A DNA stretch of 18,250 nt from Desulfuromonadaceae bacterium GWB2_53_15 (GTDB taxonomy: Bacteria > Desulfobacterota > Desulfuromonadia > Geobacterales > Pseudopelobacteraceae): contig MHXL01000039.1 in assembly GCA_001824455.1 (NCBI GenBank), forward strand, positions 3,917 to 22,166. Reading direction: 5' to 3'. The notes beneath the pieces were generated by a model. It worked only from the letters and a program-made list of their open reading frames with translations, searched no databases and had not been told where the DNA came from. Shown piece by piece: positions 784-6,537 of the stretch. Position 1 is the stretch's first letter; every line of letters starts with the position of its first letter. Both the position numbers and the translations under genes were made by a program.

Positions 784-987
784 CTACCCAAGCATTTTTA
801 TCCTACTCAATTCTGCTATCTGTGTAGTCTTAGTTCTTTCTCTTTCCATATAACTTAAAGCTTCACTTTCAAGAGAGCGTTTTACCATCTCAAAAGCAAG
901 ATTCCATTCTTGTTGTCTCTCGCTGTCAACAGGTTGGTAATTGGATAAAAGGTCCTCTTGTTCCAATAACCTCCGTATTCCCTTCAT
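784..987 (-). CDS. Small 67-residue protein translationally coupled to the papain-like protease
   Basis: I do not recognise a family. The protein is charged and probably all alpha-helical (MKGIRRLLEQEDLL..., then a Glu/Arg/Lys-rich middle and a basic C-terminus ending SRIKMLG), with no signal peptide, membrane segment or cysteine motif. Its ATG overlaps the stop codon of the upstream protease gene as ATGA (984-987), and a strong ribosome site (GGGGAGG) sits inside the end of that gene. That arrangement normally keeps two products at a fixed ratio, so it may be a partner, inhibitor or adaptor of the protease. The partner role is inference from context only; the gene itself is well supported by start, overlap and ribosome site. 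Confidence 0.65.
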   Translation of the reverse strand: MKGIRRLLEQEDLLSNYQPVDSERQQEWNLAFEMVKRSLESEALSYMERERTKTTQIAELSRIKMLG

Positions 988-2479: not shown

Positions 2480-2815
2480 CTATGACTTGCGTTCTTTCAG
2501 GAACTGGATATTTGACAGAACAAGCTGACGGCTATCCCGAGACAATGAGGTGAATACTTTGAAGGCCTCGGAGGTTTCCGGATCAAGAAACATCCCCTCA
2601 ATAGTCTCTGCACCTAGCAAATAATCAGTGCTCGTCCCAAGGGCTTTCGCCAGTTTTAGCAGAGTTTCGATAGAAGGTGATTTGTCACCCCTTTCAAAAC
2701 GATTAATTGCTGGCGCAGACACTCCAACCTGCTCGCCTAACGTCTTTTGTGTGAGTCCAATCTCTTTCCGCTTACTTTTTATCCGTAAACCAGTAACTTT
2801 TGGGTTTATCTCCAC
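2480..2815 (-). CDS. XRE-family transcriptional repressor of the divergent locus
   Basis: This 111-residue protein has a classic Cro/C1-type helix-turn-helix in residues 8-65: LRIKSKRKEIGLTQKTLGEQ, then VSAPAINRFERGDKSPSIETL and LAKALGTSTDYLLG. The C-terminal 40 residues are a short helical tail, possibly for dimerisation, without the S24 peptidase of large phage repressors. The start is GTG at 2813-2815 with GGAGG five bases upstream. It is transcribed away from the Ubl operon and toward the protease gene. Several CC/GG dyads lie between it and the operon and overlap promoter elements on both strands, so autoregulation plus control of the Ubl genes is the natural reading. HTH assignment is secure; targets are inferred. 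Confidence 0.9.
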   Translation of the reverse strand: MEINPKVTGLRIKSKRKEIGLTQKTLGEQVGVSAPAINRFERGDKSPSIETLLKLAKALGTSTDYLLGAETIEGMFLDPETSEAFKVFTSLSRDSRQLVLSNIQFLKERKS

Positions 2816-3040: not shown

Positions 3041-3286
3041 ATGAAAGAAGATCACGTCAATCAGGGTGGCCAGAAATATTTCGTGAACATTGAGGGAAAG
3101 GAATTTCCGTGGGGTGATGAAACAATTACAGCTGAGGAAATTGCTCAACTGGGCGGCTGGGATCTCAGCCAAGGGATCGTTGAGGTTGACGAGGAAAACA
3201 ACGAGAGGACTATCAATGCAAGTGAAGTCATAGCCATAAAGCCCGGGCACGGGTATGGCAAAAAACACACTTGGAAACGAGGTTAG
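3041..3286 (+). CDS. Single-domain ubiquitin-like protein (multiubiquitin-type beta-grasp)
   Basis: The 81-residue protein fits the bacterial multiubiquitin (Multi_ubiq) beta-grasp pattern. It has a first strand and hairpin (KYFVNIEGKEFPWGDETIT, residues 12-30), a helix (AEEIAQLGGW, 31-40), strands (GIVEVDEENNERTI, 45-58) and the 'I-N-A-S-E-V-I-A-I-K-P-G' turn before an aromatic tail. Related proteins usually carry two or more copies in tandem; here there is one. The C-terminus is KKHTWKRG, so a glycine is already exposed for adenylation and conjugation without trimming. It is the presumed modifier activated by the E1-like protein, passed through the E2-like protein and removed by the JAB protein encoded next to it. 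The ATG has AAGGAG nearby upstream. It is first in a four-gene operon with gaps of 2-4 bases or overlaps. Family call rests on pattern and neighbours. Confidence 0.8.
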   Translation: MKEDHVNQGGQKYFVNIEGKEFPWGDETITAEEIAQLGGWDLSQGIVEVDEENNERTINASEVIAIKPGHGYGKKHTWKRG

Positions 3287-3288
3287 TC

Positions 3289-3696
3289 ATGCGAATAAGA
3301 ATTGCTAAGGAGTTGGAATTGCTTAAAAAATACTACATTGATGTCGAACACCAAGAAGTTGGGACCGACGATTGGTTTTTAATCCCTTCTTACCCGTTAC
3401 CAGAGGGATGGAGCGTCAGTTGTGACAAGCCAGCCTTCGTTAAGGTTGCTTTCTCTGTATCCGCTGGTCATCCGGGGACGGAACCCTATGGCTTTCTCGT
3501 TCCTCTGGGCATTTCTTACAACGGGGTACCCCCCAATAATGGAGGGGCGCCGCCAAAGGCGCCCCCTTTTCCTGGTGAATGGTTTCATTTTTCCTGGTCT
3601 CCTGGAAATTGGTGCCCCACAGCTGACGTAGCAGCTGGGTCAAACCTTCAGGCGTGGGCCAGAAGCTTTATAAGCCGATTGAAGGAGGGTGTATGA
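3289..3696 (+). CDS. E2-like (UBC-fold) protein, prokaryotic E2 family E type
   Basis: I chose ATG 3289, two bases after the Ubl stop and behind GAGG, over a TTG at 3271 that lies inside the Ubl gene; this gives 135 residues. The layout matches prokaryotic E2 family E: an N-terminal helix (ELELLKKYYIDVE), WFLIPSYPLPEGW (29-41), a strand KVAFSVSAGHPGTEPYGFLV (52-71) with the E2-type 'yP..P' turn, a Pro/Gly-rich loop, WFHFSW (98-103), then NWCP (107-110) and a C-terminal helix LQAWARSFISRL. The only cysteines are C45 and C109. Neither sits at the classical E2 catalytic place, which should be near residues 99-102. The product should receive or position the activated Ubl for transfer. Its end overlaps the JAB start by ATGA. 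A terminator-like stem lies within the gene. Family call moderate to good; chemistry uncertain. Confidence 0.75.
   Translation: MRIRIAKELELLKKYYIDVEHQEVGTDDWFLIPSYPLPEGWSVSCDKPAFVKVAFSVSAGHPGTEPYGFLVPLGISYNGVPPNNGGAPPKAPPFPGEWFHFSWSPGNWCPTADVAAGSNLQAWARSFISRLKEGV
3544..3570 (+). terminator. Terminator-like hairpin inside the E2-like gene
   Basis: GGGGCGCC (3544-3551) and GGCGCCCC (3558-3565) form a perfect 8-bp GC stem with loop GCCAAA, followed by C and four T's (3566-3570). It encodes part of the Pro/Gly loop of the E2-like protein. On plus-strand RNA it has the form of a weak intrinsic terminator, and could reduce JAB and E1 transcript relative to Ubl, especially when translation is slow. 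Confidence 0.4.
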
Positions 3697-4208
3697 ATAT
3701 AACCCTTCACATCAGTCCAGAATTGTTTAACAAATTGCAAAAACACTTATTCGATCACGCAGAAGAGAAAGAACAGGGTGCATTTCTTTTCGCTAAATTG
3801 GAGCATGAATACACTGCACTTCATTTCTCAGTTACTGGTCTGCTCGAGCTTGCAGGCGATGACCTCCATCAACAAGACGTTGATTATTTGGAGCTATCCG
3901 AGAACTCCTGGCCCAAGGTCATCAAGCAGGCTCACTCTTTAGAAGCATGCTTAATCGAAGTTCACTCACACACTGGTCCATGGGATGCTGCATTCTCAAT
4001 TTCGGATTATCATGGTCTACGTGAAACTGTGCCTCATATCTGGTGGCGTTTAAAAAATCGACCATATATGGCCCTTGTTTTCACAAAGGAAGGTTTTGAT
4101 GCTCTGGTATGGACTGATTCCCCACGCAACCCACTGCCGCTAGACTACATATCAGTCGATGGGCTAAAAATAAAGCCAACAAACCATTCACTCATATACT
4201 GGAGGTAA
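3693..4208 (+). CDS. JAB/JAMM-family metalloprotease (Ubl isopeptidase/deconjugase)
   Basis: The JAMM zinc motif is complete: E27 in KEQGAFLF, then H91-S-H93 in EVHSHTGPWD, then S102 and D105 in FSISDYHG. This fits E...HxH(x8)SxxD, with one residue more in the spacer than the common x7. Such enzymes use Zn2+ to cut isopeptide or peptide bonds after Ubl C-terminal glycines. Since the Ubl here already ends in glycine, removal of Ubl from targets is more likely than precursor processing. I chose ATG 3693 (171 residues) over 3654 because AAGGAGG stands just upstream and the ATG overlaps the E2 stop as ATGA. The E1 gene follows after four bases. Cytoplasmic; no signal peptide. Confidence is high for the fold, good for the role. 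Confidence 0.88.
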   Translation: MNITLHISPELFNKLQKHLFDHAEEKEQGAFLFAKLEHEYTALHFSVTGLLELAGDDLHQQDVDYLELSENSWPKVIKQAHSLEACLIEVHSHTGPWDAAFSISDYHGLRETVPHIWWRLKNRPYMALVFTKEGFDALVWTDSPRNPLPLDYISVDGLKIKPTNHSLIYWR

Positions 4209-4212
4209 TGAA

Positions 4213-5091
4213 ATGATAATTTCTGATCGGTACGACCGGAACATTAGGCTGTTCGGTGCTGAGGGGCAACAAAAACTCCGTGAAACAGTGGTTACGCTTA
4301 TAGGAGCTGGCGGTTTAGGAAGTGCTATCTGCCAGCATCTGGCCCTTCTTGGTGTCGGCAAAATATTTGTCATCGAAGATGAGAGTCTGGATAATACGAA
4401 CAGGAACCGATTCATTGGTGCCCGTGCAGATGATCCTATTCCGGGAACACATAAGCTTGATGTTATTAAACGTCTTGTGCGAGAGACAAACCCTGACGTT
4501 GCTTTTACGGGTATCCCTTATTGCCTATTCACAATAGAAGCATTTTCAGCGATACGTGAATCGAACTGGGTTATTGGTTGCCTAGACCACGACGGGCCAA
4601 GGGCAGTTCTGGCTGAGGTCTGTGCGGCTTACGCAAAACCGTATATAGATGCAGCTTCCGATGTTCCAGAGGCTGGAGTTTACGGTGGCAGGATTTGTAT
4701 CACCAACGGCGATGGGTGTCTTTTCTGCTTGAATCAACTGGACTCCGCTGATATAAGGCGGTTTCTTGCTACAGACGAGGAACAAAGAAATGAGGCTGCG
4801 ATTTATGGAGTTCCAATAGGCGCTCTTGGTGAAAGTGGCCCCGCAGTTTCACCAATAAATGGGGTGGTAGCGTCTCTTGCCGCAATGGAATTCATGGTTG
4901 CGGTCACGGGACTACGAGCCCCAACACGCCTGCTTGAGTATAGAGGGCATACCTCGAAAGTATTAGTTGGCACTGACATGCCGAAGCCAGATTGCTTTTA
5001 TTGTAAAGGGACCTGGGGTATCGGCGCTGAAGCAGACGTTGAACGTTACCTACGTATGCCGCATCTTCGTCAGAGAAGGGAAAACGCTTAA
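4213..5091 (+). CDS. E1-like Ubl-activating enzyme (ThiF/MoeB fold) lacking the usual catalytic cysteine
   Basis: The 292-residue protein has the adenylation domain of the ThiF/MoeB/E1 superfamily: RYDRNIRLFG at the N-terminus, the nucleotide loop GAGGLGS (31-37), the acidic strand end with DNTNRNR (60-66), K81, and C123-L-D-H-D. Two CxxC pairs (C169/C172 and C261/C264) should bind a structural zinc. In MoeB and canonical E1s a catalytic cysteine lies shortly before the 'G-x-x-G-P-x-x-G-x-x-x-S-L-x-A-x-E' helix. Here that helix is present (GPAVSPINGVVASLAAMEF, 209-227), but there is no cysteine at all between C172 and C261; S208 and S213 are nearby. It would adenylate the Ubl tail using ATP. 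The start has GGAGG seven bases upstream. It is the last gene of the operon. Confidence 0.9.
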   Translation: MIISDRYDRNIRLFGAEGQQKLRETVVTLIGAGGLGSAICQHLALLGVGKIFVIEDESLDNTNRNRFIGARADDPIPGTHKLDVIKRLVRETNPDVAFTGIPYCLFTIEAFSAIRESNWVIGCLDHDGPRAVLAEVCAAYAKPYIDAASDVPEAGVYGGRICITNGDGCLFCLNQLDSADIRRFLATDEEQRNEAAIYGVPIGALGESGPAVSPINGVVASLAAMEFMVAVTGLRAPTRLLEYRGHTSKVLVGTDMPKPDCFYCKGTWGIGAEADVERYLRMPHLRQRRENA

Positions 5092-5139
5092 TGTAAGCAA
5101 AAATACTTGAGTGAGACGTTGGTAGTAAGGTATTGGCCA

Positions 5140-5167
5140 AGGGTACGCCGTGCAGCAAGTGTACCCT
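5140..5167 (+). terminator. Hairpin after the E1-like gene
   Basis: AGGGTAC (5140-5146) and GTACCCT (5161-5167) form a 7-bp stem with a 14-base loop, 48 bases after the E1 stop. There is no T-run, so if it ends the operon it would do so weakly or with help from Rho. Confidence 0.3.
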
Positions 5168-5503
5168 CTTGAAATAGCATTACGTTCATCCCTTGGGGAC
5201 AATCCCGATAACCGTCAGATCTAATTCAACGGAGAAGTTAATTGATTGCAGAGGTAAAGCAGAGATGGAGTACGGAAATTTCTCAAGCTTGGCAGCGATT
5301 GACCTTCCACCAGATGACGGATCCATTGCAAGCTTAGCGAATTCGGTCTAATATAAACGCTATATCAGATACGTAATAGGGCAGAGGGGAAAATGTAAAC
5401 TTTCCGCGTCCGAAAAAGGTGTGAAATACATAATTGTTTACGTTATTAAAGTATTAATGGGCTGGTGGCGCACATAACATGCTGTAATTATAAATAAGAT
5501 TCC

Positions 5504-5666
5504 ATAGTTTACACTTTTTTTGTCGTCTTAACCGTTTTGACTCAGGTAAAAAATAAATCTGATTAGAACTGATCTACCGCCAGCCCTTCTCCCAGAGGGA
5601 GAGGGGATTGTTTCGCCGCCATAGCGGGAGATTGATTCTACTCAGCAAAATAAATATGTAAACTAT
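5504..5666. repeat. Inverted repeat pair bounding about 163 bases (MITE-like candidate)
   Basis: ATAGTTTACA (5504-5513) is the exact complement of TGTAAACTAT (5657-5666). The similarity continues imperfectly inward as T-rich and A-rich arms. No target-site duplication is visible at the flanks, so insertion-element status is uncertain. Confidence 0.4.
5585..5605. repeat. CCCTTCTCCC/GGGAGAGGG hairpin repeat
   Basis: The arms 5585-5593 and 5597-5605 pair around loop AGA with one G-T pair. The CCCT...AGGG composition resembles the hairpin repeats at 12806-12880 and 15711-15745, suggesting one dispersed intergenic repeat class. Confidence 0.45.
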
Positions 5667-5667
5667 T

Positions 5668-5697
5668 AGCCGTAGACCCTGTGTTTACGGCTTTTTT
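5668..5697 (+). terminator. Predicted Rho-independent terminator
   Basis: AGCCGTA (5668-5674) and TACGGCT (5686-5692) form a 7-bp stem with an 11-base loop, followed by further T's to 5697. It has no gene close upstream; the Ubl operon ends about 580 bases earlier. It could stop readthrough before the DUF2007-like gene. Confidence 0.5.
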
Positions 5698-5710
5698 GTG
5701 TTTACTTGTC

Positions 5711-5740
5711 TTGACATAATTGCAACGCTAAAGGTCATAT
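5711..5740 (+). promoter_or_regulatory. Possible promoter of the DUF2007-like gene
   Basis: A perfect TTGACA (-35) stands at 5711-5716, with only a poor -10 candidate, TCATAT, at 5735-5740 (18-base spacer). It directly follows the terminator-like stem and lies about 90 bases before the gene. Confidence 0.35.
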
Positions 5741-5827
5741 TCTATGGGTATCGGTTTTATGATATTATAAAGACGTAGAAAGCAGTCGAGAATGTTGAAT
5801 ATTCCTCAGAAAAGGGGGTTGGTTCTC

Positions 5828-6354: not shown

Positions 6355-6537
6355 TCAGGACAATTTATCGGTGTCACCGGACACATGTGGAAAAATTTCG
6401 TGACGCACTTCGTGGTCCAAGTGAAGAATCTTGCCGCAGGAAGCACACAAATATTTTTCCTCCATGGTGGTGTACTCGCCCCTTTCACACTCTTTGCACC
6501 AGATTCTGATGTCGCATGATTGCTCTTGTTCAGTCAT
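6355..6537 (-). CDS. Small zinc-ribbon protein
   Basis: The 60-residue protein has two CxxC knuckles, W-C-K-E-C and Y-L-C-A-S-C-G-K, 16 residues apart between knuckles, the pattern of a zinc ribbon, followed by a His-rich segment (LHLDHEVRHEIF). An additional Cys lies near the N-terminus. The ATG has AAGGAG upstream, which makes translation likely. Such proteins may be metal-binding or nucleic-acid-binding; no specific family is recognised. It is a stand-alone gene between a relic and the amidohydrolase cluster. Confidence 0.65.
   Translation of the reverse strand: MTEQEQSCDIRIWCKECERGEYTTMEEKYLCASCGKILHLDHEVRHEIFPHVSGDTDKLS

What the first reader, a model, noticed from the sequence alone, without database searches (positions are those of the whole stretch)
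3041..5091. Complete four-gene ubiquitin-like conjugation/deconjugation operon (Ubl - E2-like - JAB - E1-like)
Four genes are packed with gaps of 2 and 4 bases and one ATGA overlap, encoding a beta-grasp Ubl ending in Gly, a UBC-fold E2-like protein, a JAMM isopeptidase with all zinc ligands, and a ThiF/E1-fold enzyme. The order is that of bacterial Ubl cassettes linked to anti-phage defence (Bil/Bub-type operons), but the E2 and Ubl types look like the family E / multiubiquitin class, which is less understood. Function as immunity is inference from family context and from the repressor- and protease-bearing neighbourhood.
Basis: partly seen in the sequence, partly recalled or inferred. Interest (0 to 1): 0.9.

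Follow-up and report, generated by a model that had tools for sequence, protein, structure and literature searches.

The report
Bacterial ubiquitin-like operon with protease neighbour
A bacterium carries a four-gene ubiquitin-like protein-tagging operon whose two enzymes lack the usual active-site cysteines, next to a repressor and a protease-like gene, and relatives of that protease sit beside several known kinds of bacterial antivirus system.

Summary

The unexpected part lies outside the given coordinates. On the opposite strand a CapH-like repressor (XRE), a 463-residue protein with a papain/C39-like Cys-His-Asp pattern and a 67-residue protein form an apparent transcription unit. Of 10 other core relatives of the 463-residue protein, 4 lie beside a Ubl operon (3 Bub, 1 BilABCD), 5 beside restriction-modification genes, 1 is undetermined. 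In one genome the repressor, C39-like and small genes are 54, 59 and 42% identical to the window's while the Bub operon is of another type. I propose a swappable immune-operon control cassette in which a cysteine peptidase takes CapP's place. Peptidase activity, repressor cleavage and phage immunity are inferred, not shown.

The parts
3041..3286 (+). BubA-like single ubiquitin-like modifier, 81 aa, ends WKRG
   Evidence: Multi_ubiq 23.2 bits, cut-off 24.5; KRG end in 9 of 9 Ubl units of this clade examined
3289..3696 (+). BubB-like E2/UEV-fold protein without catalytic cysteine, 135 aa
3693..4208 (+). BubC-like JAMM isopeptidase, 171 aa
   Evidence: HSHTGPWDAAFSISD motif; BilC model E 0.0017; BubCD E 0.061
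4213..5091 (+). BubD-like E1/ThiF adenylating enzyme, 292 aa, four conserved CxxC-type cysteines (zinc inferred), no crossover cysteine
   Evidence: ThiF 3.5e-36; 121-sequence alignment
2480..2815 (-). XRE/CapH-like repressor, 111 aa, divergent from the operon
   Evidence: HTH_3 1.5e-18; PADLOC capH 2e-15, but generic phage repressor profiles score as well (phrog_8 1.7e-20); 54% and 45% identical to XRE genes beside Bub operons in L063 and L023
984..2375 (-). 463-aa papain/C39-like putative cysteine peptidase (Q144, C151, H252, D289/D290)
   Evidence: Q, C, H and DD in 21 of 21 sequences aligned, window included; Peptidase_C39_2 in 7 of 15 A6 members at E<=0.1, the window protein not among them; no PADLOC hit in 15 of 15
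784..987 (-). 67-aa small protein overlapping the C39-like gene by 4 bases
   Evidence: 42% identical over 64 aa to the equivalent gene in L063
2816..3040 (.). divergent promoter/operator region with ACCTGCAGGT, TAACCACAGGTAAC and TAACCATTGGTTA
   Evidence: ACCNNNGGT at 2880 and 2914, though 6 occur in the whole window against 3.1 expected, 19 of 200 shuffles reaching 6

Best explanation
A split Bub-type (6e) ubiquitin-like pathway under a repressor/peptidase switch. (1) Shown by sequence and model: the cast is Ubl, E2/UEV-fold protein without conserved cysteine, JAMM peptidase and E1. (2) Inferred: the E1 adenylates the C-terminal Gly of ...WKRG; with no E2 cysteine and no crossover cysteine, the BubB-like protein binds E1-Ubl and guides transfer to a target without an E2 thioester. 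The JAMM enzyme reverses this and, in relatives where the Ubl is fused to the E2-like protein at KRG, frees the Ubl. (3) Inferred: XRE represses the divergent operon through ACC-N3/4-GGT palindromes, and the C39-like protein with its 67-aa partner senses infection or DNA damage and relieves repression, most simply by cutting XRE, as CapP cuts CapH. (4) Inferred: the output is anti-phage defence.
For: Fold and class. No conserved catalytic Cys; Iyer 2006 states the same for class 6e E2-like domains (PMC1779556, passage). Fusions at KRG. Control cassette: L063 keeps XRE 53.5%, C39-like 58.9% and small protein 42.2% while E1 is only 26% identical and E2, JAB and Ubl give no meaningful local match. 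L025 pairs XRE + small + C39-like with a BilABCD operon (PADLOC E 7e-55, 4e-51, 7e-66, 2e-166). L004, with the same operon type as the window, has XRE + M78/IrrE peptidase (5e-25) in the same divergent place. Rough chance of neighbours: about 1.5% for N6_Mtase and 0.9% for any ThiF within 5 kb. CapW or CapH+CapP stand beside 219 of 544 Bub operons (PMC13373217, passage).
Against: The C39-like protein is not always paired with XRE: in L023 it closes the Bub operon, in L027 it is convergent with it, and in the five restriction-modification cases my XRE profile marked no gene. Its fold is unproven: the single-sequence model failed (pLDDT 36) and its profile matches no solved structure at E<=1. 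Similarity of the window XRE to CapH is generic: phage repressor profiles match it as well. XRE and C39-like of L025 are only 32% and 20-29% identical to the window's. Defence genes cluster, so neighbours may reflect islands rather than function. C123, C137 and C162 of the E1 are in 110, 114 and 111 of 121 sequences and an unusual thioester is not excluded. The promoter scan did not flag TTGACA-N17-TACTTT. A Bub phenotype against phage is reported as not shown.
Confidence: 0.58

Rival explanations
1. A canonical E1-E2 thioester cascade: Cys109 of the window's E2-like protein is the catalytic residue.
For: The window protein does have a cysteine in the W-C-P-T segment after the central sheet.
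Against: Only the window has Cys at that column, 1 of 121; the 72%-identical closest relative has Ile; 72 of 121 sequences have no cysteine at all. The E1 lacks a conserved crossover cysteine.
Confidence: 0.08
2. The C39-like protein is not a controller but the deconjugating or effector peptidase of the system, acting on Ubl conjugates or, as a toxin-like effector held by the small protein, on host proteins.
For: In L023 it ends a Bub operon whose JAB-E1 protein has no HxH motif and no Pfam JAB match; in L027 it is convergent with a Bub operon. A small gene adjoins it in several loci.
Against: Five of ten other core relatives lie beside restriction-modification genes, with no Ubl operon marked nearby; the window already has an intact JAMM motif.
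Confidence: 0.25
3. The operon serves a stress or housekeeping role (protein tagging after DNA damage, or sulphur transfer like ThiS/MoaD) rather than phage immunity.
For: E1 without crossover Cys and with MoeB/ThiF similarity; the authors of PMC13373217 say Bub may serve global stress responses (passage).
Against: No thiamine, molybdenum or sulphur gene recognised among the nine window proteins scanned with Pfam; none of 56 other near relatives has the E2-like gene; BubB-like and JAMM partners; defence-linked neighbour family.
Confidence: 0.22
4. The C39-XRE association is only defence-island clustering, with no functional link to the Ubl operon.
For: C39-like genes sit beside several defence kinds; order and orientation vary.
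Against: Same gene order and orientation and closely similar XRE, C39-like and small genes in the window and L063 with different Bub types; XRE shared between the window and L023 (45%).
Confidence: 0.2

Closest known systems
Bub (bacterial ubiquitination-like) operons; Citrobacter BubA, BubB, BubCD structures (9ea4, 9ea5, 9ea8, 9eae, 9eav)
   Different: JAB and E1 are separate genes; one Ubl instead of a multi-ubiquitin; own E2 subfamily whose window member Pfam misses; 21% identity to BubB over 121 aligned residues
Type 6e operons of Iyer, Burroughs and Aravind 2006 (PMC1779556; table parts and passages seen)
   Same: Tandem or (once) solo Ubl, inactive E2/RWD-like domain, JAB and E1; Ubl-E2 fusions
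   Different: Their JAB and E1 are described as fused, and a zinc-finger gene is listed; none recognised in this operon. No regulator in the passages seen
BilABCD
   Same: Four genes in the order Ubl, E2, JAB, E1; a BilABCD operon carries a related XRE + small + C39-like set (L025)
   Different: PADLOC gives no hit for the window Ubl or E2-like protein, only E 0.0017 to BilC for the JAB, and no BilD among the 25 of 27 families shown for the E1
CapH + CapP immune-operon controller
   Same: Divergent XRE repressor with a co-encoded peptidase-like gene; the window XRE hits capH at 2e-15
   Different: CapP is described as the peptidase that cleaves CapH (passage); its M78/IrrE family is from my recall. 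Here the partner is an unrelated C39-like protein

Membership tests
Bub / type 6e | Ubl of the Multi_ubiq family | tested here: met
   23.2 bits against a 24.5 cut-off, E 7.8e-5: marginal, but with matching gene order
Bub / type 6e | E2/RWD-fold protein without catalytic cysteine | tested here: met
Bub / type 6e | JAB and E1 as one fused protein | tested here: not met
   separate genes 3693-4208 and 4213-5091; also separate in L004 and L006. Hence 'Bub-type variant', not a textbook member
Bub / type 6e | Zinc-finger / metal-binding accessory gene | tested here: inconclusive
   none within the operon; 6355-6537 has only sub-threshold zinc-ribbon matches
Bil | BilA, BilB, BilC and BilD proteins | tested here: not met
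   PADLOC: Ubl and E2-like 0 families; JAB BilC at E 0.0017; E1 no BilD among 25 of 27 families shown
CBASS type II Cap2 (E1-E2) | One E2-E1 fusion protein | tested here: not met
   the window E1 hits PADLOC E1-E2 models (best 9.9e-12) but only over their E1 part (profile 167-320 of 426); it is a separate 292-aa protein
Catalytic E2 | Conserved active-site cysteine | tested here: not met
   1 of 121 has Cys at the only candidate column
CapH + CapP | CapH-like XRE repressor | tested here: met
   PADLOC capH 2e-15; the HTH is generic (phrog_8 1.7e-20), so weak
CapH + CapP | Adjacent M78/IrrE metallopeptidase | tested here: not met
   no such match in the two genes that follow XRE; present in L004
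Peptidase C39-like (papain fold) | Cys-His-Asp with upstream Gln | tested here: met
   21 of 21 sequences aligned; 10 further loci, mostly fragments, were left out
Peptidase C39-like (papain fold) | Significant family profile or fold match | tested here: inconclusive
   Peptidase_C39_2 at E<=0.1 in 7 of 15, best 2.4e-4; the one score seen, 21.3 bits for L024, is below the 24 cut-off; model failed

The most novel reading that the evidence does not exclude
XRE + C39-like cysteine peptidase + small protein is a further, undescribed class of immune-operon controller, exchanged between Bub, split Bub and Bil operons, with the peptidase (and often a small gene) also recruited beside type I, type III and Dcm/Vsr restriction-modification genes; infection activates the peptidase, which removes the repressor and switches on a ubiquitin-like system that works without E1 or E2 thioesters.
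Probability: 0.35. Interest if true: 0.78.

Novelty: new variant of a known kind. Interest (0 to 1): 0.6.

Why it matters
It separates what is known (Bub-type Ubl pathway, inactive E2-like domain) from two testable open points: how a Ubl is passed on when neither E1 crossover nor E2 cysteine exists, and how such operons are switched on. The same putative peptidase beside Ubl systems and restriction-modification systems offers a handle on a shared trigger for otherwise unrelated bacterial defences, and a marker for finding new ones: PADLOC and NCBIfam do not recognise it in 15 of 15 members, nor PHROGs in the 2 tested.

Tried and rejected
Tried without yield: IMG/VR scans with the E2 profile and with the C39-like protein, no relative; phage records, no match for either; single-sequence AlphaFold of the C39-like protein, pLDDT 36, not used; PDB search with its profile, no hit at E<=1. 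Own-genome ThiF relatives L002 and L003 were looked at as controls for the crossover cysteine and dropped, as by eye they too show none in that stretch. The MoeB/ThiF cysteine position is recalled, not computed.

Rejected: Bil membership; catalytic Cys109; G827 hit as a Bub locus. ACC-N4-GGT as a shared operator: found only in the window among four intergenic regions; ACC-N3-GGT is in the window and, by eye, twice in L023, not in L063 or L025. Similarity to a same-genus contig stops at the amidohydrolase 3' end, window 6819: only one relative could be compared, so no claim of an island border.

Limits of the neighbour count: 30 neighbourhoods were taken (L023-L026, L027, L059-L083). The core set counted is the 10 that score E 1e-130 or better; four of these (L023, L024, L025, L027) were themselves in the profile, and the Ubl labels of L023, L025 and L027 come from profiles that contain them, so I rest those labels; L063 is independent. 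Of the other 20 lower-scoring loci only L067, L068 and L070 had a neighbour checked by Pfam (each has a DNA methylase); the rest are not classified. L072 lost its hit on re-scoring. In one search, 20 loci were aligned with the window; the 10 left out are mostly fragments; the two long ones among them checked by pattern (L073, L081) show Q..C and DD but my His pattern found nothing. L024 and L059 are near copies and count as one event; in the nine control genomes other than the window's, 4 of 9 C39-like loci have ThiF or N6_Mtase within 5 kb, P about 4e-5, or 3 of 8 and 7e-4 with the copies collapsed, a rough figure that ignores island clustering.

Literature: Ye 2026, Gong 2025 and Chambers 2024 were not held; their titles were seen in reference lists only. 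I recall something about oxyester chemistry in Bub but could not check it and do not rely on it. Searches aimed at a C39-like controller of immune operons listed no such paper among the rows shown (20 of 23, 20 of 229, 5 of 5); of the papers that one search listed, I saw the abstract and passages of PMC12255303, which concerns another regulator. Subscription papers and preprints are not covered.

Full report
What is there. Divergently, on the - strand, lie XRE 2480-2815, a 463-aa gene 984-2375 and a 67-aa gene 784-987 that overlaps it by 4 bases. The window's genome (G000) is unnamed and 52% complete.

The Ubl and fusions. Six of the 121 proteins are Ubl-E2 fusions of 216-236 aa, and a Ca. Tenderia plasmid fuses three Ubl units to the E2-like domain. 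In 9 of 9 Ubl units of this clade examined (window, L004, six fusions, last unit of Tenderia) the Ubl ends in KRG; in the seven fusions the E2-like domain follows at once. This points to that Gly as the mature end and to a processing role for the JAMM enzyme in fused relatives.

The E1. One search found 1084 relatives at E<=1e-30, of which 120 were listed. Among 121 aligned sequences (window, 119 of these, Tenderia) C169, C172, C261 and C264 are invariant; between residues 173 and 260 no column has 10 or more Cys. The conserved stretch there is GP[SA]V..xN, which Citrobacter BubCD and L007 share as PSV/PAV...N. C123, C137 and C162 are frequent (110, 114, 111 of 121) but not invariant. The E1 also hits PADLOC's CBASS E1-E2 models over their E1 part (best 9.9e-12).

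Distribution. The E2 profile matches 1 of 57 near relatives, the own genome only; 2 of 277 class genomes, the own one and one with a classical Bub operon; 2 of 398 genomes of the phylum of L004, L004's own genome and one unconfirmed; a single sequence matches 1 of 72,556 plasmid records and 0 of 50,697 phage records. PF14462 matches 3 of 395 phylum genomes, 2 over the cut-off, the own genome not among them. The system is rare and patchy, as expected of a mobile accessory trait.

The neighbour family. Searching plasmids with the 463-aa protein brought a Mesorhizobium plasmid where its 22%-identical relative is convergent with an annotated ThiF, hypothetical, multiubiquitin operon. Searching genomes found relatives in 5 of 57 near relatives, own included and, with a five-sequence profile at E<=1e-5, in 17 of 277 class and 9 of 395 phylum genomes. 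I fetched neighbourhoods and labelled them with my own profiles. Ten loci besides the window score at E 1e-130 or better. Ubl operons lie beside four: L023 (Bub with DUF6527), L027 (Bub), L063 (Bub with fused A-B and C-D) and L025, a BilABCD operon by PADLOC. Restriction-modification genes lie beside five: L024 and L059 (type I HsdM, near copies; Pfam run on L059), L060 (Vsr and C5 methylase), L061 (ResIII and N6/N4 methylase), L074 (HsdR). L062 ends with its contig. In the ten-genome control, N6_Mtase (47 matches) and ThiF (30 matches) in 36.9 Mb give about 1.5% and 0.9% chance of lying within 5 kb.

Is it a peptidase? Gln, Cys, His and Asp-Asp at the window's 144, 151, 252 and 289-290 are kept in 21 of 21 sequences aligned. 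Peptidase_C39_2 matches 7 of 15 members at E<=0.1, best 2.4e-4. PADLOC recognises 0 of 15, NCBIfam nothing relevant, PHROGs nothing for the two tested. The fold is not proven.

The module argument. L063, in another family of the same class, has the window's layout: small 67 aa, C39-like and XRE on one strand, Bub operon divergent. Identities to the window are XRE 53.5%, C39-like 58.9% and small 42.2%, but E1 26.2% over 221 residues and no meaningful match for E2, JAB or Ubl. So the control set and the Ubl operon appear to have been recombined. L004, whose operon is of the window's type, has XRE and an M78/IrrE peptidase in the same divergent place, the CapH+CapP pattern; CapW or CapH+CapP stand beside 219 of 544 Bub operons (PMC13373217, passage seen). 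The simplest reading is that the C39-like protein plays CapP's part. Against it: the window XRE matches generic phage repressor profiles as well as capH, and the C39-like gene lacks an XRE partner in the restriction-modification cases.

Operator. The intergenic region holds ACCTGCAGGT, TAACCACAGGTAAC and TAACCATTGGTTA, the last between TTGACA and a poor -10. L023 shows two similar sites by eye; L063 only a degenerate one; L025 has a different palindrome, TTCACA..TGTGAA. ACCNNNGGT occurs 6 times in the window against 3.1 expected, two of them here. The promoter scan did not flag this promoter. This is suggestive only.

Judgement. Class identity is firm (about 0.95). No E2 thioester: about 0.9. 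Controller role of XRE: about 0.7; of the C39-like protein: about 0.4. Immune output: about 0.7. New in this window, as far as the calls show, are the split single-Ubl format with its own E2 subfamily and, more so, the C39-like partner gene.

Noticed in passing
L013:194-7747 (G1020:C50): A classical Bub operon (Prok-E2_E and JAB-ThiF) stands beside type III CRISPR-like genes (two RAMP proteins, Cas10 palm domain) and an NYN protein.
   Followed up: partly
L068:1091-5530 (window's own genome, contig C86): A second C39-like relative in the same genome sits directly before type I HsdM and a probable HsdS gene.
   Followed up: partly
L023:8160-9835: Bub operon whose JAB-E1 protein has no HxH motif and which carries a DUF6527 gene (E 5e-22); perhaps the peptidase function has moved.
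   Followed up: partly
L006:5338-6381 (Ca. Tenderia electrophaga plasmid CP013100.1): Three Ubl units and the E2-like domain in one 347-aa protein on a mobilizable plasmid.
   Followed up: partly
L016:4452-5685 (G314:C56): Another split Ubl, E2-like and JAB set, the JAB frame running into an E1-like start near the contig end.
   Followed up: no
window 5092-5791: About 700 bases without a convincing gene between the operon and the next gene (DUF2007, 5792).
   Followed up: no
window 6819: DNA similarity to a same-genus contig (L089) stops at the 3' end of the amidohydrolase gene; the operon side has no counterpart there.
   Followed up: partly
L025, L023, L024, L063 and window, next to the C39-like gene: A small gene of 57-79 codons adjoins the C39-like gene in each; of the pairs compared with the window (L063, L023, L025) only L063's is alike. 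A possible inhibitor or partner.
   Followed up: partly
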